From positions 68,107-132,106 of the forward strand of contig LJIE01000001.1 of assembly GCA_001281695.1 (NCBI GenBank): a stretch of 64,000 nt of DNA, read 5' to 3'. The DNA comes from a bacterium 336/3. GTDB taxonomy: Bacteria > Bacteroidota > Bacteroidia > Cytophagales > Thermonemataceae. Made by a program: the position numbers and the translations under genes. The notes under the pieces were generated by a model. That model was not told where the DNA came from. It worked only from the letters and a program-made list of their open reading frames with translations, and did no database searches. Shown one piece after another: positions 1,453 through 32,064 of the stretch (the first letter of the stretch is position 1; each line of letters opens with the position of its first letter).

Positions 1453-2742
1453 ATGAAAAAGTATTTCGTTTTTTTTCTTTTCATATCATTTATTTCAAAA
1501 GCTCAGAAAATCACCTTAGAGGAAGCTATCCAAACAGCTTTAAAAAATAATTACGATATTCAAATCATACAAAATAGTAATAAAATAGCTCAATTAAACA
1601 ATTTTACAGGCAATACAGGCAAACTTCCTCGTGTCAATTTGCTTATCAATGATAACTACCAACTTTTTGGTATCAATCAGTTACTTGCAAACGGAACAGA
1701 AACCAACAGAAATGGAGCTACTTCCAATAATCTCAATGCCACTGTTCGAGCTGACTGGCTCATTTTCAATGGTTTTAGAGGAACATCTACAGAAAAACGA
1801 TTGGATTTACAGGAAAGCAATTCTCAGCTCAATTTAAAATCTCAAAATCAACAAATTACAGCCTCTGTAACAGTTGCTTATGTAGAAATTATTCGTCAGA
1901 AACAAATTAAAAAAGTTTTACAAAGCAGTTTAGAAGTTTCAGAAAAACGATTGGAAATTGTAAAGAAACGTGCCGAATTGGGTACAGCCAATCAAACGGA
2001 TATTTATTTAGCTGATTTGGACATCAATACACAGCGACAAGCTGTTTTTTCACAAGACTTAGCTATCAAACAAGCTAAAGTAAATCTCAATATTCTGATG
2101 GGTAAAAAAGCTGAAGACGAGATAGAGGTGGTAGATGATATTACTTTTCAAAAAGATATTTCCATTGAAAAACTTAGACAAAACTTAAAGAATTCACCTC
2201 AAATAAAGGCTATTCAAAATAATATTGAAGTCAATAAAAATTTAGAACAAGAGGCTGGAGCAGGTCGTTTACCCACATTTAATCTCAATGCTGGTTATAC
2301 TTACACTCGAAATAACAGTACAGCAGGTTTTTTGCTACTCAACCAGAATTATGGACCTTTTGTAGGATTTAATTTCACACTACCCTTATATAATGGAAAC
2401 ATTAATAATCGTCAATTAGAAATTGCTAAAACTCAAACTAAAACCCAAGAATTAGAACTTGCTCGTGTTGAACAAAACTTACAAGGAGAACTCGAAAGAC
2501 AATGGCAAGCATATTTATTAGCAAGTGAACAAGCAAAAGCTGAGGAAAAAAATGCTCAAACTGCCCAAGAATATCTAAAATTGATGCAGAAACGCTTTGA
2601 GTTAGGGCAATCCAATATTATTGAAATCAGAGAAGCTCAAAGAGTAACTGAAAATACTGAAGGACGAAAAATTCAGAGTTTATTTAGCTTAAAAGTCGCT
2701 GAAATACAATTGCTTTTGGCAGCAGGTATGCTGGGTGAATAA
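1453..2742 (+). CDS. TolC-family outer membrane efflux protein
   Basis: This 429-residue protein begins with a signal peptide of about 18 residues ending in SKAQ. The rest shows the TolC/OEP pattern of two homologous halves of long, Gln/Glu/Lys-rich helices. The N-terminal half starts with ITLEEAIQTALKNNYDIQI, the typical opening of the family. Later parts include LGTANQTDIYLADLDINTQRQA and LGQSNIIEIREAQRVTENTEG, matching the helix pair that lines the periplasmic tunnel. It should form a trimeric outer membrane channel for an export system. No RND pump or adaptor gene is next to it, so its partner is probably elsewhere. It is separate from the TolC domain fused to the RND pump at 25883-30304. 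It ends directly at a strong hairpin terminator. Confidence 0.9.
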   Translation: MKKYFVFFLFISFISKAQKITLEEAIQTALKNNYDIQIIQNSNKIAQLNNFTGNTGKLPRVNLLINDNYQLFGINQLLANGTETNRNGATSNNLNATVRADWLIFNGFRGTSTEKRLDLQESNSQLNLKSQNQQITASVTVAYVEIIRQKQIKKVLQSSLEVSEKRLEIVKKRAELGTANQTDIYLADLDINTQRQAVFSQDLAIKQAKVNLNILMGKKAEDEIEVVDDITFQKDISIEKLRQNLKNSPQIKAIQNNIEVNKNLEQEAGAGRLPTFNLNAGYTYTRNNSTAGFLLLNQNYGPFVGFNFTLPLYNGNINNRQLEIAKTQTKTQELELARVEQNLQGELERQWQAYLLASEQAKAEEKNAQTAQEYLKLMQKRFELGQSNIIEIREAQRVTENTEGRKIQSLFSLKVAEIQLLLAAGMLGE

Positions 2743-7519: not shown

Positions 7520-10075
7520 ATGAAAATATTCAGAGCTATATTTTTATCTTTCATCAGTATTATTTTGGTGTACATACTCCAAAATAAACTTTCAGAAACT
7601 CCACTCATTAAAAGCTATATTCCTGAAAGTTTAGCATCTGCTCCCCCCATTGGTATTTTTTTAGATCCTTTTAATGGTTTTTGGATAAATGCTGAACCAA
7701 AAAATCTAAAAAGTAAGATAAATTTAGATATTGTTGGCTTGAAAAGTAAAGTAGAAGTTATTTTAGATCAAAGGCTAGTTCCTCACATTTTTGCTGAAAA
7801 CGACCATGATTTATATTTTGCTCAAGGTTATATAACTGCTTCTTACCGTTTGTGGCAAATGGAATTTCTTACACATTTTGCAGCAGGCAGACTTTCAGAG
7901 TTTATTGGAGAAAAAACTATTGAAGTAGACCGTTCTCAAAGAAGAATGGGGCTATTGAGAAGTGCTCAAAAAACACTGAATAATATGTTGAAAGACTCTA
8001 CTTCTGCATCTGTTCTCAATGCTTATACTAGTGGTGTGAATGCTTATATCAAATCTCTATCTCCACATGAGTTACCTCTTGAATATAAAGTTTTAAACTA
8101 TGCACCCGAAGAGTGGACATCTTTAAAAACTGTTTTATTACTCAAATACATTGCCTACGACCTTTCTGTATCAGGAAATGATGATTTTGCCAACTCACTT
8201 GCTATGGCAAAGTATGGAGAAAATGTAACTGATAGTTTATATACTCACAATCCTTTTAGGGTACAACCTGTCATTCCTACCAAAAGCCCTATTGATTTTA
8301 AACCTGCAAAAAAACTTGTACACCCCAAGGGTTACGATTCAATCAGCAGAACTATTGCTAAAAACCTAGAAGAAACACAAAACATCTTAAATGAAAAATA
8401 TAAACCCAAAGAAGAAAAAAGTAAAGGAAGTAATAACTGGGCTATTGGTGCTAAAAAAACAGAAACTGGCTTCCCTATTCTAGCTAGCGATCCACACTTA
8501 AGTTTAAAGCTACCTTCCATTTGGTACGAAATTCAGCTTGTTAGCCCAAATGTAAATGTATATGGGGTTTCTTTACCTGGTACACCAACAGTAGTGATTG
8601 GGTTTAATGAGAAAATAGCGTGGGGTATTACAAGTGCCTATACAGATGGCTTAGATTTTTATCAAATAAAATTTAAAGATGAAAAATTAGACGAGTATTT
8701 TCATGATGGTATTTGGAAAAAAACTATTACCCATAAAGAAATTATTAAAGTAAAAGGAGGAAAAGATATTCTTGAATATATTCAGTACACACATCATGGA
8801 CCTGTAGTATTAGAAGCTCCTGCCAAATTGTACCCTAATAAACCCAATGATTTATATAATATAACTGTACCATACCAACATGCAATGTATTGGGTGGGTG
8901 CAGATAGTACATCTAATGAAATATTGACTTTTTATAATCTCAATAGAGCAAAAAAGTATGATGATTTTATTAATTCATTTGCATCATTTAGTTGCCCTTC
9001 ATTAGCCTTTGCTTACGCTGATGCTGATAAAAATATAGCAATGTATATAGCAGGGAAAATTCCTATGCGTTGGAATGGACAAGGCAAATATGTTTTAGAT
9101 GGATCTTCTTCAGCTTTTGAATACAAAGAGTATATTCCTTTTAACCAAAACCCGAAAGTTTTAAATCCAGAACAACAATTTGTAGCCTCTGCAAATCAGC
9201 TGATTACAGATACAACTACCTATCCATACTATGTAGGATACGATTTTATTTCTCCAGAAAGAGCTATTCGTATCAATGAAAAACTCAATGCAATGACTCG
9301 CATCAAGTATGAGAACATGAGAGAGTTACAAAATGATGTTTTGGGTATTCATGCTCGTGATGCACTTCCAAAATTATTGAGTATGCTTGATACCACACAA
9401 CTCAAAGGAGATGCTCAAAAAACACATCAAATACTAAAAAAATGGAACTACCTCTATCAATCTGATTCACAAGGAGCAACTTGCTTTGAAATCTGGTTCA
9501 CAGAGTTTAGAATAGCCCTTTGGCAAGATGAATTAGGTTATATTCCTAATTATCCTAACACAGACCAAACACTTAGAGTTTTATTAAGGGATACAACAAG
9601 CAGATGGATTGATGATATCAGTACTACCAATAGAGAAACTTTAAAAAGCTTGATTAATACAAGTTTTAACAAAGCTATTGATAAACTAAAAGAAAAACAC
9701 AAAGGCAATGATGAAAACTGGTTTTGGGGAAAGCACAAAGGCTTCCATCTAGATCATTTGCTTATTCCTAATCTGGGTTTATCAAATCTGATGACCTCAG
9801 GTAGTTCAAGAACCGTCAATGCCACCAGTGATACACATGGACCTTCATGGAGAATGGTTGTGATGTTGGGAGCAAATAGTCCAAGAGCTTATGGCATATA
9901 TCCTGGTGGGCAATCAGGTAATCCTGGGAGCTTGTACTACTCCAATATGGTAGAGAACTGGAGATTAGGAGAGCTTGAAGAACTTCTTTTCTTAAAAAAT
10001 TCAAAAATTAAAAATCAGAAAATCATTACAACCATTCAAATGAATGCAAAGCAGACAGATGGTTTAATAAAGTAA
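7520..10075 (+). CDS. Penicillin acylase family (Ntn) hydrolase
   Basis: This 851-residue protein belongs to the Ntn-hydrolase family that includes penicillin G acylase and quorum-signal acylases. These cleave amide bonds with an N-terminal Ser exposed by self-cleavage. The key site is visible: GSNNWAIG, with the predicted cut between Gly303 and Ser304. The part before it corresponds to the alpha chain and linker (RLWQMEFLTHFAAGRLSEFIG), and the rest to the beta chain. Near the end, SGSSRTVNAT and GPSWRMVVMLG are typical beta-chain sequences. A hydrophobic N-terminus (residues 1-22) indicates a signal peptide or membrane anchor, so it acts in the periplasm. It stands alone after a terminator. 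The substrate cannot be read from the sequence; N-acyl homoserine lactones, peptides or beta-lactams are all possible for this family. Confidence 0.92.
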   Translation: MKIFRAIFLSFISIILVYILQNKLSETPLIKSYIPESLASAPPIGIFLDPFNGFWINAEPKNLKSKINLDIVGLKSKVEVILDQRLVPHIFAENDHDLYFAQGYITASYRLWQMEFLTHFAAGRLSEFIGEKTIEVDRSQRRMGLLRSAQKTLNNMLKDSTSASVLNAYTSGVNAYIKSLSPHELPLEYKVLNYAPEEWTSLKTVLLLKYIAYDLSVSGNDDFANSLAMAKYGENVTDSLYTHNPFRVQPVIPTKSPIDFKPAKKLVHPKGYDSISRTIAKNLEETQNILNEKYKPKEEKSKGSNNWAIGAKKTETGFPILASDPHLSLKLPSIWYEIQLVSPNVNVYGVSLPGTPTVVIGFNEKIAWGITSAYTDGLDFYQIKFKDEKLDEYFHDGIWKKTITHKEIIKVKGGKDILEYIQYTHHGPVVLEAPAKLYPNKPNDLYNITVPYQHAMYWVGADSTSNEILTFYNLNRAKKYDDFINSFASFSCPSLAFAYADADKNIAMYIAGKIPMRWNGQGKYVLDGSSSAFEYKEYIPFNQNPKVLNPEQQFVASANQLITDTTTYPYYVGYDFISPERAIRINEKLNAMTRIKYENMRELQNDVLGIHARDALPKLLSMLDTTQLKGDAQKTHQILKKWNYLYQSDSQGATCFEIWFTEFRIALWQDELGYIPNYPNTDQTLRVLLRDTTSRWIDDISTTNRETLKSLINTSFNKAIDKLKEKHKGNDENWFWGKHKGFHLDHLLIPNLGLSNLMTSGSSRTVNATSDTHGPSWRMVVMLGANSPRAYGIYPGGQSGNPGSLYYSNMVENWRLGELEELLFLKNSKIKNQKIITTIQMNAKQTDGLIK

Positions 10076-24831: not shown

Positions 24832-25800
24832 TCAATTAAATTTTTCATTAAACCCTTTTTCAAATTCTTCTACCACTTTTACAATGGCTTCTTCAGTTTG
24901 GTGTCTTCGGGAGAAGTGAATAGGAATCGCTTTTTTCACGTGTGCTTTTTTAGCTACCTGCCCCGAAAGAAAAGCTGTACTATGATGATTTTTTTCAGCA
25001 AGTTCCAACTCTTCATGCAAATAATAGGCTTCTATATACAATTCATCAGCTTGTTTGCACAAATTGATAATCTTTTGATGGTTCTCTTCAGAAGCCAAAT
25101 GATCCATCACAAAAGCTATTTTTGAGCCTTTTTTTTCTTCCAAATACACAAATAAGTCTTGAGCTTTATGCAAATTTCCTTCTATGAGTATCTCTTTTTC
25201 AGGATTTTGCTCTACAAAAGCTTGTTTCAAAGCCTTTATCCATTCTCCTTGTTTAAAAGGCAAATCCTTTTGAATACTGATTTTTGAGTGTTCTGTAAAA
25301 CAATATGCAATACAAGGCGTTCTATGGTTTAGAATCGCATATTCTACACTAAAAACCTCATTTTCGTACAAATATTGCTCTTGTAAAATGCCTTTGTGTT
25401 CCAATTCCCATTTAGGTGTATGAAGCACATATACATCTATTTGGTTTTCAGATATTTCTCTTACTTCGTAATGCAAAGCCTCAGCAGCTTGTTCTTCAGA
25501 GAGCAGAATATCCCAGTTATAGCCCAAAAGCTTAGATTGTACATTTTTAGCTATTCCTTTGGGTCCACAAATCGTTACTTTTCGGTTTACTTGCAACTGA
25601 TGCCTTAAGATTGTATCAAAATTGCAAAAATGGTCTATATGTGTATGGCTGATAAAAATCGCCTGAATGTTTTTTATATCACTGATAGTCAAATCAGAAG
25701 CTTGCCCACAATCGCATAAATAAGTGAAAGAGTGGTTGGGAATATTGAGTTGCAAACAAACATCTTCTTTCAATTTACTTTTTAAAATCGCCTGAATCAT
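24832..25800 (-). CDS. RNase Z-like metallo-beta-lactamase protein
   Basis: The metal-binding motif HTHIDHF lies at residues 52-58, followed by VMDHLAS with the bridging Asp and a C-terminal IPIHFSRRHQ. The latter resembles the HFSxRY motif of tRNase Z, and YIEAYYLHE fits the LIxEATF-like block. The start MIQAILKSKL is preferred. The open frame extends 30 codons upstream, but that extension would run through the terminator palindrome of the efflux operon. It may process tRNA 3' ends or hydrolyse another phosphodiester or ester. The usual first Asp-Cys-Gly stretch (LCDCGQASD) is present. Confidence is high for the fold and moderate for tRNase activity. Confidence 0.82.
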   Translation of the reverse strand: MIQAILKSKLKEDVCLQLNIPNHSFTYLCDCGQASDLTISDIKNIQAIFISHTHIDHFCNFDTILRHQLQVNRKVTICGPKGIAKNVQSKLLGYNWDILLSEEQAAEALHYEVREISENQIDVYVLHTPKWELEHKGILQEQYLYENEVFSVEYAILNHRTPCIAYCFTEHSKISIQKDLPFKQGEWIKALKQAFVEQNPEKEILIEGNLHKAQDLFVYLEEKKGSKIAFVMDHLASEENHQKIINLCKQADELYIEAYYLHEELELAEKNHHSTAFLSGQVAKKAHVKKAIPIHFSRRHQTEEAIVKVVEEFEKGFNEKFN

Positions 25801-25852
25801 AGTTATATATGTTTGAGAAAGGTACAAATTTACACAAAGCCATACAAATAAA

Positions 25853-25878
25853 AAAACACGAGAAGCTTCTCGTGTTTT
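25853..25878 (-). terminator. Terminator of the efflux operon
   Basis: The 26-base perfect palindrome AAAACACGAGAAG / CTTCTCGTGTTTT follows the RND-TolC gene on the minus strand. It is preceded and followed by AT-rich tracts. Confidence 0.85.
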
Positions 25879-25882
25879 AAGT

Positions 25883-28800
25883 TTATTCACCTTGTGCTTT
25901 TTTCAGTTCAATTTCTATAAGCAAACAATTGTAAACCAAACCAATATGATTAAATTTTGCTTGTTGTAAAACCATTTCGGAATCTATCAAATCTCCTTGT
26001 TTTACAATTCCTTTTTTCCAACGGTCGTACATCAAATTGTAAGAACGTTGGGCTGCTTTTAACACTTTTTCCTGTGTTTGGAGTTGCAGACTTGTTTCCT
26101 GAAGTGTATTTTGAAGTGTCTGAATCTCTAAATTTACTTGTTTGATGGCAAAATTATAACGTTCTGAAGTTTGCTCAGACTCTAATTTAATTTGTGCCAT
26201 TTTATTGTTTTGCCTAAATCCATTAAACAGAGGTACATTTAATTGTAGTCCTACAAAAGTAGAATTAACCCAACGATATTTATTAAAATCGAAATTTTCT
26301 TGTTGTGTAAGGATAGAATGTTGCCCAACAAGTTGCAGATTAGGTATTAATTTCGCTTTTTCTATTTTAACCTGATTATCAAGTATTTTCTTTTGAATAT
26401 TTAGTTGTTCTAAATCTGTTCTCTTCTTGGCTTCAAGATTAGAAAATACAATATTTTTAGGATTAAAATGCAGACTATCAGAAAATTGCAAAACTTCTTG
26501 GCTTGGTAAATCAAGTAAAAGCTTTAACTGATTTTCAGCAAGTGTGTATGCATTTTTAGTTTTGATAAGATTTGGTTTGAGGTTTTCGACTTGTACGTAT
26601 GCTTGTAGTGTATCTGCCTCTGTTAGAAAGCCTTGTTCCAAACGTTGTCTTACATCCGAAAGTATTCTGTTTTGGCGTTTGAGATTTTCTATCCAAAAAT
26701 CGTGTTGAGCTTTTGCCCAAAGAGCGTCAAAATAGATTTTTCTCAATTCTGCTAATTTCTGATTTTCAAGTGTTTTAAGAGCTAAGTAAGCATTTTCTTT
26801 GTTTAATTGAGCATTTTCAAGTATAGGTTTGTTTTCAAACTGCAATAAAGGTACAGAAAGTGTCAGGTTTGCCTGATAAACATTCTTGGCACTTGCATTT
26901 ACCGAACGAAATTCTTTAGAATCGGCAGTTGGGTCGAAGAAAGTTGCAGGCAGGAAAAACACTTGTGGTCTGATATTTCTGTTATAATTTCCACTCAAAT
27001 TTAAAGATGGTAAATATACACTTTGAGCTTCCTTCACACCATATTCAGACTTTTGAATGTCTTTTTTCTGGATGTTCAGTTCTATATTATTCATTTTTAA
27101 TTTCATCTCAGTTTCTTTTAAACTCAAAGTTGTTTGAGAGTATCCGTTTATTGTTGTAAGTATCATAAAAAGACCCGTTACAACAGCTTTTTCGAGAATA
27201 TTTTTCTGAGCGTTCATGATATTTTTCTTAGAAAATCTTTTTAAAATCCTGTCTAACTCTAAATAGATCGCAGGGACAATAAATAATGTGAAAATCATGG
27301 AACTTGTAAGCCCTCCTATGAGTACCCATGCTAAAGCAGAGTTGTACTCACCACCAGAGCCTGTTTGCAGAGCCAAAGGCAACATTCCTATGACCATGGC
27401 AAGGGTAGTCATCAGAATAGGTCTCAAACGAGTTTTACCTGCATCCAAAAGAGCATACAATACATTTCGTCCTTCTTTTCTGAGTTCATTGGCTCTATCT
27501 ACAATCAGGATAGCATTTTTGGCAACAAGCCCCAGCATCATAATCATTCCGAAAATAGAAAAGACATTGAGTGTTTTCATGGTAAGAGCCAAAGCTAACA
27601 AAGCCCCTGTAAGTGCCACAGGAATAGAAAACAATACCACAAATGGATATAAAAATGAATTATAAAGAGCAACCATAATCAGGTACACAAATGTAATCCC
27701 TGCAGTAATGGCTAAACCCAGATATACAAAAGAGTCATCTGCCATTTCCAAATCCCCTTCGTAGCTAATTTTAATGCCTGCTGGCGGAGGATTTTGGGCT
27801 ACTATTTGTTTAATTTCTTCACCAATTTCGTTTACTGACTTTCCAATAGCCTTAGAAAACATAGTTACAGAAGCATTTTTATTTCTGCGTTCGAGAGCAG
27901 AAGCCGATGTAATCATTTGTATATCAGCAATCTGTTTTAGATAAATAAGTTCGCCTTGAGCATTGATAAAACTCAGATTTTCAATTTGTTCTGTTTTATT
28001 ACGATCAGATTTTTCCAATTGTACCCTTAGAGGAAACTCAGTATTTCCTTCTCTGAATTTCAAATCGTCAAAGCCTGTAAGAGCTACTCGTAAGGTTGTA
28101 GCTACTTCGTCCAAATTTAATCCCAAACTAGCGAGTCTATCTCTATTGATTTGTATATCTAATTCTGGTTTCCCTGCAAGTATAGATAGGCGTACATCAT
28201 CAGTTCCCTTAATTTCAGATGTCATTTTCTTGAGTTTTTGTGCATACTCAAACATCTGCTTTCTATCTGCTCCACTAATTAAAATCTGGATGGGAGTAGC
28301 CTCAGCACCTATTACCCCAACAGGCGAAACTTTTACTTTTGTACCTGCCTCCTCTAAAATCATGTTTCGAATCTGTTGAGACATTTGTAGTACAGTTTTA
28401 TTTCTTTGTTTTTTATCTGTAAGCAGAATTGAGAACTCTATTTGATTATCTCCTATTACTTCCCCAAAATAAGGGTCATTGGAAAGCCCTACAGTGCTAA
28501 ATATTCTTTTTACTTCTGGTAGGTTCTGGATTTTTTCCTCAAATTTTTGAGCTACTCTTTGTGTTTCTTCAAACTTTGTACCTGCTGGTGTTTCTACAAT
28601 TACAGAAATTTCACCTTTGTCTGTGGTAGGAACAAACTCTCCGCCTATATAACCTTCTGTTACCAAACTAAAAGATGCTATCATAGAACCAAAAGCTACA
28701 AAGTACACAACCCAACGAAATTTCAAGCCTTTTTTCAAAAAAGAAACGTAAAAATTCGTTAGCTTATGAATCTGCTTTTCTATGGTTAAAATAATTTTTC

Positions 28801-30304
28801 CAAAAATGTTTTTAGGACTCAGATGCTCCAATTTTGCAAAACGAGAAGCCAGCATGGGCGTAAGCGTAAAGGAAACAATTAAACTGGCAAGTGTAGAAAC
28901 CACTATTACCAAAGCAAATTCTTTTACCAAACCACCTGTAATGCCTGGGACAAAAGCCAAAGGTAAAAACACCACCACATCTACAAGTGTAATAGAAAGA
29001 GCTGAAAAGCCTATTTCATTTCTGCCATCTAAAGAGGCTTTTACTTTGTCTTTTCCCATTTCCAGATGCCTATAAATATTTTCTAAAACGACAATTGAGT
29101 CATCCACAAGAATTCCTATTACCAAACTCATCGCTAATAAAGTCATCAGATTTAGGCTAAAATCCATGATATACATTCCTATAAATGAGAATACTAAAGA
29201 AGAAGGGATGGCTATCATGACTATTAAGGCATTTCGGAGTGAATGCAAGAAGACAAGCATCACAAGAGCTACCAGAAAAACTGCTATAATCAAATCATGA
29301 AAAACTGTTTCTGTAGCTTTTAATGTAAACTCTGAGCTATCCGCAGCTATTTCAAAAGTTAGTTTTTGTGTTTTATATTCTGTCTCAATTTTTTTAATTT
29401 CGTTTCTTACAAGCCCTGAAACCTCTACAGCATTGGCATTAGATTGTTTCTGAACAATCAAACCAATAGAGTTTTTTTGATTGAGTCGGGTAATGGTTTT
29501 ACCATCTTTACTGCCATCTTCGAGGGTAGCAATATCTTTGAGCTTAATTTTGCTTCCATCTTTTAGAACTGCAATATCCAGATTTTCAAGGGTTTCAAAC
29601 TCTGATATTTTCCCATTCAAACGCAAACCAAATTGAGCATCTTCATCTTTGATATTGCCAATAGGTACATCCAAATTTGATTTTTGTAAAGCCTGTACCA
29701 CTGCCAACATAGGTATTTGATGATATTTTATCTTTTGTTCATCCAAATACACTTTTATTTCTTTTTCTTCACCACCCACCAACTGAATACGCCCAACTCC
29801 TTTGAGTTGTGATAGATGAGGTTTTATTTGCTCTTTTAAAATCTGATACAATTCTTTTTCTGAAAGACTTGAGGTACTTGCTAAACGCAAAACAGGTAAG
29901 TCTGCCAACGAATATTTATCCACAGTAGGTGTTTTTGCACCTTGAGGTAGTTGTGGTACAACCTGATTTACAAAGCGTTGTACCTCTTGCATGGCTTTAT
30001 CGAGGTCTGTATCTTGTAAAAACTCAATACTGATTACAGCATAACCTTCATTAGAACGTGATGTAATGCGTTTTACTTTACTTGCTCCAGCCACAGCATC
30101 CTCAATTTTTTTGGTAATAGTACTTTCTATTTCAGCAGGTGAAGCACCCTCATACACAGCTATTACTGAAACAAATGGAGCATTAATTTTGGGTAATAGC
30201 TCATATTTCAATTGCCCGATGGCAAATATTCCTAATAAACTGATTATCAATAAAAACACAATAATCAAGATAGGTCTTTTGATGGAGATTTCTGTGAGTG
30301 TCAT
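25883..30304 (-). CDS. RND efflux pump fused to a TolC-like outer membrane channel
   Basis: This 1473-residue protein is a single open frame. Residues 1-1029 form a complete HAE1-type RND transporter. It begins MTLTEISIKRPILI, with GILVDDSIVVLENIYRH in the TM4 region (its two Asp are the proton-relay positions) and TTLAMVIGMLPLALQTGSGG late in the domain. At about residue 1030 a new Met starts MNAQKNILEKAV, followed by a hydrophobic run and GYSQ. That resembles a signal peptide leading into a TolC-family channel (about 1060-1473) with LSLKETEMKLKMNN and LEQGFLTEADTLQAYVQVE. It sits two bases after the adaptor gene in a TetR-controlled operon, so pump, adaptor and channel form one tripartite system. 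A separate internal start at 27217 is the alternative reading. Confidence 0.93.
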   Translation of the reverse strand: MTLTEISIKRPILIIVFLLIISLLGIFAIGQLKYELLPKINAPFVSVIAVYEGASPAEIESTITKKIEDAVAGASKVKRITSRSNEGYAVISIEFLQDTDLDKAMQEVQRFVNQVVPQLPQGAKTPTVDKYSLADLPVLRLASTSSLSEKELYQILKEQIKPHLSQLKGVGRIQLVGGEEKEIKVYLDEQKIKYHQIPMLAVVQALQKSNLDVPIGNIKDEDAQFGLRLNGKISEFETLENLDIAVLKDGSKIKLKDIATLEDGSKDGKTITRLNQKNSIGLIVQKQSNANAVEVSGLVRNEIKKIETEYKTQKLTFEIAADSSEFTLKATETVFHDLIIAVFLVALVMLVFLHSLRNALIVMIAIPSSLVFSFIGMYIMDFSLNLMTLLAMSLVIGILVDDSIVVLENIYRHLEMGKDKVKASLDGRNEIGFSALSITLVDVVVFLPLAFVPGITGGLVKEFALVIVVSTLASLIVSFTLTPMLASRFAKLEHLSPKNIFGKIILTIEKQIHKLTNFYVSFLKKGLKFRWVVYFVAFGSMIASFSLVTEGYIGGEFVPTTDKGEISVIVETPAGTKFEETQRVAQKFEEKIQNLPEVKRIFSTVGLSNDPYFGEVIGDNQIEFSILLTDKKQRNKTVLQMSQQIRNMILEEAGTKVKVSPVGVIGAEATPIQILISGADRKQMFEYAQKLKKMTSEIKGTDDVRLSILAGKPELDIQINRDRLASLGLNLDEVATTLRVALTGFDDLKFREGNTEFPLRVQLEKSDRNKTEQIENLSFINAQGELIYLKQIADIQMITSASALERRNKNASVTMFSKAIGKSVNEIGEEIKQIVAQNPPPAGIKISYEGDLEMADDSFVYLGLAITAGITFVYLIMVALYNSFLYPFVVLFSIPVALTGALLALALTMKTLNVFSIFGMIMMLGLVAKNAILIVDRANELRKEGRNVLYALLDAGKTRLRPILMTTLAMVIGMLPLALQTGSGGEYNSALAWVLIGGLTSSMIFTLFIVPAIYLELDRILKRFSKKNIMNAQKNILEKAVVTGLFMILTTINGYSQTTLSLKETEMKLKMNNIELNIQKKDIQKSEYGVKEAQSVYLPSLNLSGNYNRNIRPQVFFLPATFFDPTADSKEFRSVNASAKNVYQANLTLSVPLLQFENKPILENAQLNKENAYLALKTLENQKLAELRKIYFDALWAKAQHDFWIENLKRQNRILSDVRQRLEQGFLTEADTLQAYVQVENLKPNLIKTKNAYTLAENQLKLLLDLPSQEVLQFSDSLHFNPKNIVFSNLEAKKRTDLEQLNIQKKILDNQVKIEKAKLIPNLQLVGQHSILTQQENFDFNKYRWVNSTFVGLQLNVPLFNGFRQNNKMAQIKLESEQTSERYNFAIKQVNLEIQTLQNTLQETSLQLQTQEKVLKAAQRSYNLMYDRWKKGIVKQGDLIDSEMVLQQAKFNHIGLVYNCLLIEIELKKAQGE

Positions 30305-30306
30305 AG

Positions 30307-31356
30307 TTATTGAATTTTTACTTTTTGACCATTTTCTATATTATTTTGCCCTTTTACAATTACTTTGTCGCCGAGTTTCAAGCCTGAAAGCACCTCTATA
30401 TTTTCACCATATTCTCTACCCAAAACTACTTTTTTAGATATCGCCTTTTCATTTTCAATCACAAAAACCTGATTATCAAGAATTGCTATTCGAGGTACAA
30501 GTAAAATTTCTTTTTGGGTATTATCTGCCAATATTACTTCTGCATTCATGCCTGCCAGTATGGGTTTTGTTGGGTTGTTTTGCATCAGGATTTCTACTGG
30601 AAAAGTACCCGCATCTGTACTCTGAACGGCTATGGATTTGATGACTCCTTCAAATTTTTCTTCTTTTCGGGTTGGTATAACAACTTGCACTTTTTGTCCA
30701 ACTTTCACTTTATCAAGGTCTTGTGCTGTCAGATTCACAAACAAACGTAGTTGAGCAATATCTGTAATAGTTGCTATAGGTGTTCCTACGCCCAATACCT
30801 TCCCAATACCTACAAGTTTTTGTGAAATTACTCCGGAAATAGGGCTTTTGATAACTGCATAATCTAAAGCCTGCTGAGATAATTGCAGGTTTTGTTCTGC
30901 ATTTTGCATCTGAAAACGAGCATTTTCTAAGTCATACTCTGAAAGATTGTTATTTTTGAACAATGCCTCATAACGTTCAAAATCTCTTTTGGCTTTCTGA
31001 TAATTGATTTCAGCTATTTTTCTTTGTGTTTGTTTGGTTTTAGCATCTATAATTGCTAAAACCTGCCCCTGAGCTACTCTGTTGTTCAAATCGAAGTAAA
31101 TCTGTATGATTTTACCATCTGTTTCTGAAAGCACCTCTAATGTTTCAAAAGCTTTAAAAATACCTGTTGCTTTAAAAATACCTTGTACTTTTTTTGTTTG
31201 TATAGATGCAATTTGAACGCTTGTAAGGGGTTTTATTTGTGCCTCTTTGGCTTGAGCATTTTGTTTTTCAACGTTTCCGTTTAAAATAACAGTTATTCCA
31301 AAAATCAGTGAAGCTGTAATGGCTATCACCAGCAAAATTTTGATAGATGATTTCAT
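30307..31356 (-). CDS. RND efflux periplasmic adaptor (membrane fusion protein)
   Basis: The 349-residue protein has a signal/anchor at residues 7-25 and no lipobox Cys. It then has the HlyD/AcrA arrangement of a lipoyl half (TDGKIIQIYFDLNNRVAQGQVL), a coiled-coil hairpin (residues 100-160), the second lipoyl half (YAVIKSPISGVISQKLVGIGKV) and a beta-barrel (VGQKVQVVIPTR). The C-terminus LGDKVIVKGQNNIENGQKVKI is the membrane-proximal domain. It links the inner-membrane pump to the outer-membrane channel. It is the first structural gene after the TetR regulator and lies two bases before the RND-TolC gene. Two palindromic operator-like sites lie in the 99 bases upstream. Confidence 0.95.
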   Translation of the reverse strand: MKSSIKILLVIAITASLIFGITVILNGNVEKQNAQAKEAQIKPLTSVQIASIQTKKVQGIFKATGIFKAFETLEVLSETDGKIIQIYFDLNNRVAQGQVLAIIDAKTKQTQRKIAEINYQKAKRDFERYEALFKNNNLSEYDLENARFQMQNAEQNLQLSQQALDYAVIKSPISGVISQKLVGIGKVLGVGTPIATITDIAQLRLFVNLTAQDLDKVKVGQKVQVVIPTRKEEKFEGVIKSIAVQSTDAGTFPVEILMQNNPTKPILAGMNAEVILADNTQKEILLVPRIAILDNQVFVIENEKAISKKVVLGREYGENIEVLSGLKLGDKVIVKGQNNIENGQKVKIQ

Positions 31357-31455: not shown

Positions 31456-32064
31456 TTATTTTTTTAATCCTTTATAAAAATCGTCCCATAAATCCTCGAT
31501 AGATGTAAGAGCTTTGGTAAAATTTTCTGTGAGAATGTTATGGATAAAGTTCGAATCGATACTGTATATAAATAATTTAGCTATATGATGACTTGACATG
31601 GGTGTATCTATTTCCCTACTTTCTTTGGCTTTTTCTATAATTTCCTCCCACATGATTTGCTCTTCCAGATGCATATTTTTAAGTTTTTCCTTAAAATCAG
31701 GAAAACGATGGATAGCATCGAAAACTAAGAGAAAATAGTTCATATTATTATAATCTTCCTCTTTCTCAACATTTACACACTCTTTGATGAATCCTATAAA
31801 CCTTTGTAAATGTTTTACATAACTTAAATAAAAATTTTTCAAAGAAGATTTATCAAAATCACTTTGATTGTTCATTTCATCACCCAAATAAAATGTATCT
31901 ATCACTTCTATAAATAATTGCTCTTTACTTTCAAAGTAGTGATAAAATGCTCCTTTAGAAAGTTTTGTTTCTCTTACAATGTCTTGCATTGTAACATCTT
32001 TAAAATTTTTTTGTATAAAAAGCCTAAAAGCTATTTTAAGTATATGTAATTTCGTTTCATTCAT
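31456..32064 (-). CDS. TetR/AcrR-family regulator
   Basis: The 202-residue protein has an N-terminal helix-turn-helix of TetR type: LHILKIAFRLFIQKNFKDVT, DIVRETKLSKGAFYHYF and ESKEQLFIEV. The remainder is a helical ligand-binding domain with no family signature that identifies the ligand. It is the first gene of the efflux operon and very likely represses the genes downstream as well as itself. This is supported by three near-identical palindromes, one immediately upstream of its own start and two between it and the adaptor gene. The inducer should be a compound exported by the pump. Confidence 0.93.
   Translation of the reverse strand: MNETKLHILKIAFRLFIQKNFKDVTMQDIVRETKLSKGAFYHYFESKEQLFIEVIDTFYLGDEMNNQSDFDKSSLKNFYLSYVKHLQRFIGFIKECVNVEKEEDYNNMNYFLLVFDAIHRFPDFKEKLKNMHLEEQIMWEEIIEKAKESREIDTPMSSHHIAKLFIYSIDSNFIHNILTENFTKALTSIEDLWDDFYKGLKK

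What the first reader, a model, noticed from the sequence alone, without database searches (positions are those of the whole stretch)
25883..30304. RND pump and TolC channel in one reading frame with a buried signal peptide
Seen: one uninterrupted frame of 1473 codons holds a full RND transporter and then a TolC-like channel, joined at about residue 1030 by a Met, a basic-hydrophobic run and GYSQ, like a signal peptide. Known: RND C-termini lie in the cytoplasm while TolC sits in the outer membrane. Inference: the linker may carry the channel across the inner membrane and be cut by signal peptidase, giving two proteins from one chain in fixed ratio. Alternatively, translation restarts at the internal Met.
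Basis: partly seen in the sequence, partly recalled or inferred. Interest (0 to 1): 0.62.

Follow-up and report, generated by a model that had tools for sequence, protein, structure and literature searches.

The report
Pump and channel as one polyprotein
One gene encodes an inner-membrane pump followed by its outer-membrane exit channel, with a signal-peptide-like stretch between them, so the cell most likely cuts one chain into the two proteins; the same arrangement recurs in many Bacteroidota.

Summary
On the minus strand, 30304-25883, one 1473-aa frame carries an RND transporter (ACR_tran 4-1015) and a TolC-type channel (OEP from 1071). It is unlikely to be an assembly slip: 6 of 6 named relatives are single frames, and 20 of 21 fused pumps put in a tree form one clade. 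A second, CusA-type fusion lies in the same genome; in a phylum sample 121 of 141 matches to its channel are fused. The buried segment looks like a signal peptide. The junction carries [AGSCTVIL]x[AGSC]Q, fitting the published Bacteroidetes signal peptidase I 'Q-rule', in 75 of 81 fusions and 54 of 60 held-out ones, against 17 of 824 and 17 of 605 ordinary pump helices. In the closest split/fused pairs (channels up to 82% identical) it aligns with the split channel's own signal peptide. In-frame ATGs are only slightly above chance and the window's ATG is not conserved, so restart is not the general mechanism, though in the window it is not excluded. Best explanation: one polyprotein, export of the channel through Sec, cut at GYS|Q (before the Q). 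Cleavage itself is untested. Such fusions are already annotated as single genes; my searches of open papers showed no description of them.

The parts
25883..30304 (-). RND-OMF fusion gene, 1473 aa, one frame, 165.2 kDa
   Evidence: Pfam ACR_tran and OEP
27218..30304 (-). RND transporter part, residues 1-1029; the stretches GILVDDSIVV and GLVAKNAILIV look like the AcrB proton-relay motifs (comparison from memory)
   Evidence: ACR_tran 4-1015; best solved relatives are RND efflux pumps, E 2e-118
27137..27217 (-). buried signal-peptide-like segment, Met1030 to Ser1056 (MNAQKNILEKAVVTGLFMILTTINGYS)
   Evidence: hydrophobic peak 2.29 (Kyte-Doolittle, 11 residues) at 1040-1050, net charge +4 in the stretch before it, GYSQ (letters)
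27134..27139 (-). predicted signal peptidase I cut between Ser1056 and Gln1057
   Evidence: Q-rule pattern at 75/81 and 54/60 junctions; rule from PMC5837995
25886..27136 (-). mature TolC-type outer-membrane channel, Gln1057 to Glu1473, 48.5 kDa
   Evidence: AlphaFold2 model of 1030-1473, mean pLDDT 86.9; Foldseek best match Klebsiella TolC 7ng9, E 3.1e-21; mass
30307..31356 (-). periplasmic adaptor (RND_mfp), separate gene ending 2 bases before the fusion gene
   Evidence: TIGR01730 203.5 bits, over its cut-off; coordinates
31456..32064 (-). TetR-family regulator, probable regulator of the operon (inferred from position)
   Evidence: PF00440
25853..25878 (.). terminator-like hairpin just after the fusion gene, seen on both strands
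   Evidence: 9 terminator-like sites found in the region, 3.3 expected

Best explanation
The gene makes one polyprotein. The ribosome inserts the RND pump, whose C-terminus ends in the cytoplasm. The short basic stretch and hydrophobic run that follow then act as an internal signal peptide, entering the Sec translocon and carrying the TolC part into the periplasm. Signal peptidase I cuts at GYS|Q. The new N-terminal Gln is probably cyclised, and the freed channel folds and goes to the outer membrane. Pump and channel are thus made 1:1, matching the two trimers of a tripartite pump, while the adaptor, needed in a different number, is a separate gene. Shown: the single frame, its conservation, the signal-peptide and Q-rule signature, alignment with the signal peptides of close split orthologues, and the TolC fold of the model. 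Inferred: topology, cleavage, Gln cyclisation, stoichiometry as the benefit.
For: (1) Site [AGSCTVIL]x[AGSC]Q after the post-TM12 hydrophobic peak in 75 of 81 fusions, control 17 of 824 RND hydrophobic peaks; same criterion on 60 held-out fusions: 54 of 60, control 17 of 605; split channels, which have ordinary signal peptides, 17 of 19. (2) Six split/fused comparisons of five split channels: in L225/L079 (82%), L225/L095 (73%), L231/L092 (73%) and L233/L085 (52%) the buried segment aligns with the split channel's N-terminal signal peptide, Met on Met in the first three; in L237/L068 and L236/L081 the alignment starts only inside or after it. (3) Net positive charge before the core in 76 of 81. 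(4) Split and fused forms interchange: 8 label changes on a tree of 121 fused and 16 split pumps, 7 forced by starred branches (FastTree); 16 of 19 split channels follow an RND ORF on the same strand. (5) The fusion is old: 20 of 21 fused pumps in the tree form one clade (98/99). (6) In the model only a few residues lie between the signal helix and the first channel element, while RND and OMF are reported not to touch, with about 6 nm bridged by the adaptor (passage of PMC4754349), so a channel still tied to the inner membrane could hardly assemble.
Against: No protein data: cleavage, two products and pyroglutamate were not observed. Six of 81 and six of 60 junctions miss the strict pattern; 2 of 81 (L048, L077) and 3 of 60 (L154, L161, L193) lack even [AGSC]Q. 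The search window was 3 residues shorter (74 of 81). Five of 81 stretches before the core are net negative (L054, L055, L061-L063). The window carries an ATG at the junction with an A-rich upstream stretch, and all 20 junctions of the window's wider type hold some ATG, GTG or TTG. ATG counts are above codon expectation (39 v 32.8; 28 v 22.9). Near-copies (L027/L028, L029/L030) count apart. The stoichiometry benefit is untested, and repeated split forms show that fusion is not essential.
Confidence: 0.85

Rival explanations
1. Translation restarts at the internal Met1030, so the channel is made as an ordinary pre-protein from the same mRNA, and the long readthrough chain is minor or waste.
For: The window has an in-frame ATG at the start of the signal-peptide segment with an A-rich upstream sequence. 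All 20 junctions of the window's wider type have some ATG, GTG or TTG, 10 of 20 an ATG. Some fused CusA-type relatives keep a Met aligned with the split orthologue's first Met (L079, L095, L092). ATG is slightly more frequent than codon use predicts (39 v 32.8; 28 v 22.9).
Against: 42 of 81 and 32 of 60 junctions have no in-frame ATG between TM12 and the core; 16 of 81 and 20 of 60 have no ATG, GTG or TTG (the 16 are CusA-type). Of the window's three closest fused relatives read here, L041 and L043 have no ATG in the stretch (only TTG/GTG) and L026 has one 39 residues before the core.
Confidence: 0.09
2. The chain stays whole: the extra hydrophobic run is a 13th transmembrane helix that tethers the channel to the pump.
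For: The run is hydrophobic enough to span a membrane, with the right in-to-out orientation (inference).
Against: Only a few residues link the helix to the first channel element, while pump and channel are bridged over about 6 nm by the adaptor in MexAB-OprM (passage of PMC4754349). Conserved cleavage-like sites and interchange with split forms have no purpose in this model.
Confidence: 0.04
3. Assembly or sequencing error: a lost stop or frameshift joins two genes.
For: The junction ATGA contains an out-of-frame TGA, and three split relatives do overlap by ATGA (L232, L235, L237), so a small slip could make such a join. The fused gene was not seen in the three other genomes of the genus.
Against: Full-length fused frames occur in 6 of 6 named relatives and in many other genomes; fused pumps form a well-supported clade; fused copies are annotated in two plasmid records titled complete.
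Confidence: 0.01

Closest known systems
Tripartite RND efflux pumps of the AcrAB-TolC / MexAB-OprM kind
   Same: RND transporter, periplasmic adaptor, TolC-fold channel in one locus, in the usual MFP-RND-OMF order (order stated in a passage of PMC4790245)
   Different: Pump and channel are one reading frame with a buried signal-peptide-like segment; in those systems they are separate genes (recalled).
CusA/CzcA-type RND fused to a channel in Bacteroidota (annotated 'CusA/CzcA family heavy metal efflux RND transporter', e.g. Runella slithyformis WP_013931245.1, Bernardetia WP_338794304.1)
   Same: Same fusion order and a buried signal-peptide-like segment: L007 in this genome ends TFAQ, the two plasmid copies VQAQ
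   Different: Metal-type pump by its annotation; on the two plasmids the adaptor gene follows the fusion instead of preceding it, and the product name does not mention the channel.
Bradyrhizobium FbcH cytochrome b/c1 polyprotein (recalled; searches did not show it)
   Same: An inner-membrane protein followed by an internal signal peptide and an exported protein, cut into two subunits of one complex
   Different: Both products stay at the inner membrane; here the second must reach the outer membrane.
Bacteroidetes Q-rule substrates of signal peptidase I (PMC5837995)
   Same: Gln directly after the cleavage site
   Different: Those were predicted N-terminal signal peptides; here the segment lies after more than 1000 residues.

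Membership tests
RND transporter, drug-pump (HAE1) type | full ACR_tran domain, closest solved relatives among drug pumps | tested here: met
   ACR_tran 4-1015, 830.8 bits; MdtB, CmeB, MexB, AcrB among solved relatives. No NCBIfam model reaches its curated cut-off
RND transporter, drug-pump (HAE1) type | TM4 Asp pair and TM10 Lys of the proton relay | tested here: inconclusive
   GILVDDSIVV and GLVAKNAILIV read in the sequence; the AcrB motifs are recalled, no alignment was printed
TolC/OMF channel | two OEP repeats and TolC fold | tested here: met
   OEP two stretches; model pLDDT 86.9; Foldseek TolC E 3.1e-21
Signal peptidase I substrate, Bacteroidetes Q-rule | basic stretch, hydrophobic core, small residues then Gln | tested here: met
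   window: +4, 2.29, GYSQ; sets 75/81 and 54/60
Signal peptidase I substrate, Bacteroidetes Q-rule | actual cleavage and N-terminal pyroglutamate | not testable with these tools
   needs protein data
Internally cleaved polyprotein (FbcH-like) | two mature proteins from one chain | not testable with these tools
   inferred only

The most novel reading that the evidence does not exclude
Bacteroidota repeatedly switch between a two-gene and a polyprotein form of RND pump plus channel. The polyprotein form delivers an outer-membrane protein to the Sec translocon in the wake of its own pump, fixing a 1:1 supply and letting pump and channel assemble in cis; an internal signal peptide after a complete multi-helix pump is routinely cut by signal peptidase I.
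Probability: 0.4. Interest if true: 0.68.

Novelty: new variant of a known kind. Interest (0 to 1): 0.52.

Why it matters
If true, many Bacteroidota, including copies on plasmids, make the inner- and outer-membrane parts of an efflux pump as one polyprotein. That is a natural test of how signal peptides buried deep in a chain are recognised, of stoichiometry control in tripartite pumps, and of whether an outer-membrane protein can be handed on right behind its partner. It also warns that naming the gene after the pump alone hides the channel, so such operons look as if they lack one.

Tried and rejected
Assembly error: rejected by conservation. Restart as the general mechanism: rejected by absent and barely enriched start codons; not excluded for the window. 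Internal promoter: promoter-like hits on the minus strand at 27245-27216 overlap the internal ATG, but the scan found fewer sites than its shuffles (19 against 24.5), so no weight was given. Idea that the window's fusion is a single oddity: rejected.

Literature: in searches no listed title or abstract start told of an RND-TolC fusion, and one search listed nothing; most listed papers were not opened. Passages only were read of PMC8277102 (first 300,000 of 747,799 characters held), PMC4827864, PMC10434189, PMC4754349, PMC4790245, PMC3548706, PMC3817396 and PMC4451422: none of these passages describes a natural RND-OMF fusion; PMC3548706 tells of fused CusB-CusF, PMC4754349 of constructed RND-MFP fusions. 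Searches did not show the FbcH precedent, which is recalled.

Rows dropped: L042 (its longest frame is identical to that of L026) and the split loci from the fused counts; L050 from the motif count because its TM12 motif was not recognised (its junction reads AKSQ); L030 and L042 from the tree. L126 and L043 count as fused in that tree although their frames run off contig ends. Three of 19 split channels (L238-L240) had no RND ORF in the stretch read and were left out of the tree.
Full report
OBSERVATION. The frame is on the minus strand, ATG at 30304, stop at 25885-25883, 1473 aa, no internal stop. Pfam gives ACR_tran 4-1015 and two OEP stretches, the best 1071-1264. NCBIfam matches are many RND permease and TolC models, none over its curated cut-off. 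Upstream on the same strand lie a periplasmic adaptor (30307-31356, TIGR01730 over cut-off) and a TetR regulator (31456-32064). A terminator-like hairpin follows the gene at 25853-25878. So the likely operon reads TetR, adaptor, pump-channel.

THE JUNCTION. TM12 ends near PAIYLELDR, then come a basic stretch, Met1030 (27217), a hydrophobic core (residues 1040-1050) and GYSQ (1054-1057). The published Bacteroidetes Q-rule says that signal peptidase I exposes an N-terminal Gln in most substrates; predicted Q-values were above 48% in 332 of 334 species, mean 71% (PMC5837995; outline with abstract and sections 16 and 26 seen). The same paper says that inner-membrane proteins remain untested for pyroglutamate.

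IS IT AN ERROR OR AN ODDITY? Probably neither. A scan of named genome contigs confirmed 6 loci out of 19 candidate stretches, all MAGs labelled Cytophagia, Cytophagales or Flammeovirgaceae, all single stop-to-stop frames of 1477-1524 aa; the nearest, L026, is 65% identical in its best segment. In 291 genomes of the order (at most 5 candidates scored per genome, E up to 1e-25), the channel part gave 11 places with frames of 1481-1562 aa, the window included, and one of 1134 aa cut by a contig start (G152), next to many split channels (counted by hand). One of the 11, G169, holds the same frame as L026. In the three other genomes of the genus no fused match was seen. The window's genome holds a second fusion, L007, of CusA type.

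BREADTH. With the L007 channel as query in 395 genomes of the phylum (at most 4 candidates scored per genome, E up to 1e-15), 96 genomes gave 141 places: 121 fused (frames 1439-1554 aa, own L007 included), 19 split (404-446 aa) and one of 868 aa (counted by hand). With the window's channel as query the same-sized phylum sample shows mostly split channels and, in the part of the list shown, six fused ones, the window's among them (G000, G554, G047, G441, G562, G423, list cut). So fusion is the usual state of the group that the L007 channel reaches, and a minority state around the window's channel. Two named plasmid records, Runella slithyformis DSM 19594 and Bernardetia sp. MNP-M8, carry the fusion as one CDS named only 'CusA/CzcA family heavy metal efflux RND transporter'; both junctions end VQAQ. 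Among the 5000 best plasmid records, 44 match at least 80% of the L007 protein in one place, not always in one piece.

SIGNAL-PEPTIDE TEST. I read 82 fused frames: the window, L007, six named loci, 14 unnamed ones from the window's channel searches, and the 60 best-scoring other fused rows. One (L050) lacked a recognisable TM12 motif. In the other 81 the pattern [AGSCTVIL]x[AGSC]Q follows the hydrophobic peak in 75, and [AGSC]Q in 79 (exceptions L048, L077); at the other hydrophobic peaks of the same pumps in 17 and 80 of 824. A first version with a window three residues shorter gave 74 of 81. I then fetched the remaining 60 fused rows and ran the criterion: 54 and 57 of 60, control 17 and 60 of 605; the 19 split channels gave 17 and 18 of 19. 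The buried segments thus look as much like signal peptides as the ordinary ones. The stretch before them is net positive in 76 of 81 (18 of 20 and 58 of 61). Near-copies among the named loci count apart.

RESTART TEST. In-frame ATG between TM12 and the core: 39 of 81 against 32.8 expected from codon use; held-out 28 of 60 against 22.9. ATG, GTG or TTG: 65 against 62.6 and 40 against 44.0. The small ATG excess may be a relic of split ancestors. In the window's wider type 10 of 20 have no ATG, but all 20 have one of the three codons, so the cases without any start codon are CusA-type. Of the window's three closest fused relatives read here, none has an ATG at the matching place: L041 and L043 have none in the stretch, L026 has one 39 residues before the core. 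Restart is therefore unlikely to be the shared mechanism, though it may add to it in the window.

HOW FUSIONS ARISE. Of the 19 split channels, 16 follow an ORF of 1047-1082 aa on the same strand, at up to 216 bases' distance or overlapping; these align with the L007 pump. In L232, L235 and L237 the two genes overlap by ATGA; in L223 and L225 they are in one frame, divided by a stop codon and 21 or 15 bases before the channel's first ATG. A FastTree of 121 fused and 16 split pumps needs 8 changes of state, 7 forced by starred branches; it is approximate, and direction is not inferred. In six comparisons of five split channels with tree neighbours, L225/L079 (82%), L225/L095 (73%), L231/L092 (73%) and L233/L085 (52%) line up through the buried segment, the first three with Met on Met; L237/L068 and L236/L081 align only from inside or after it. 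In the other tree, 20 of 21 fused pumps form one clade (98/99) apart from the 23 split pumps sampled, and L050 is a second origin (rows were chosen by similarity, so split members inside the clade may have been missed).

STRUCTURE. The model of residues 1030-1473 (17-row alignment, mean pLDDT 86.9, pTM 0.73; the first 30 residues only 61-68) shows the TolC element order with helices of 66 and 67 residues. Foldseek finds TolC, OprM, CusC, SilC and CmeC, best E 3.1e-21. The mature N-terminus (model residue 28) begins about 40 residues before the first barrel strand. In MexAB-OprM the pump and channel are reported not to touch, with about 6 nm in between (passage of PMC4754349). So an uncut chain with a few linker residues is unlikely to assemble.

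MECHANISM. See Best explanation: polyprotein, internal signal peptide, cut at GYS|Q, pyroglutamate probable, 1:1 products. The 3:6:3 stoichiometry of tripartite pumps is recalled; it would explain why the adaptor is not part of the fusion.

NOVELTY. The parts are known, CusA-type fusions sit in public annotation as one gene, and an internal signal peptide cut in a polyprotein is known for cytochrome b/c1 (recalled). Searches of an open-licence library listed no paper whose title or abstract start describes the RND-TolC fusion; most listed papers were not opened and most subscription journals are not held. I call it a new variant of a known kind.

Noticed in passing
L007:1465-5811 (G000:C1:661211-665515): Second, CusA-type RND-channel fusion in the same genome, junction TFAQ.
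   Followed up: yes
L224, RND stop region (G454): In a split relative the end of the pump gene runs into a short tandem repeat (unit about GAATTAGA, 8 bases, holding stops); as 8 is not a multiple of 3, slippage could move the frame in which the pump ends.
   Followed up: no
L041 (after the signal peptide) and L113 (before it): Linkers of the type PSPQPSPKEREKKTPLSVGEGQGVR and SSPHPNPSPEGRG look like translated palindromic repeats inserted beside the signal peptide (impression, not tested).
   Followed up: no
window 24832-25890 (-): Ribonuclease Z-like metallo-hydrolase whose longest ORF overlaps the end of the fusion gene; its real start is probably the inner Met at about 25800, after the terminator.
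   Followed up: partly
window 1453-2742 (+): Another OEP/TolC-type channel, unfused, 429 aa.
   Followed up: no
window 7520-10075 (+): Penicillin amidase family protein, 851 aa (Pfam E 2.2e-204).
   Followed up: no
L127 (G063:C151): The pump most similar to the window's (76% identity) is cut by the contig end at its C-terminus, so its fused state is unknown.
   Followed up: partly
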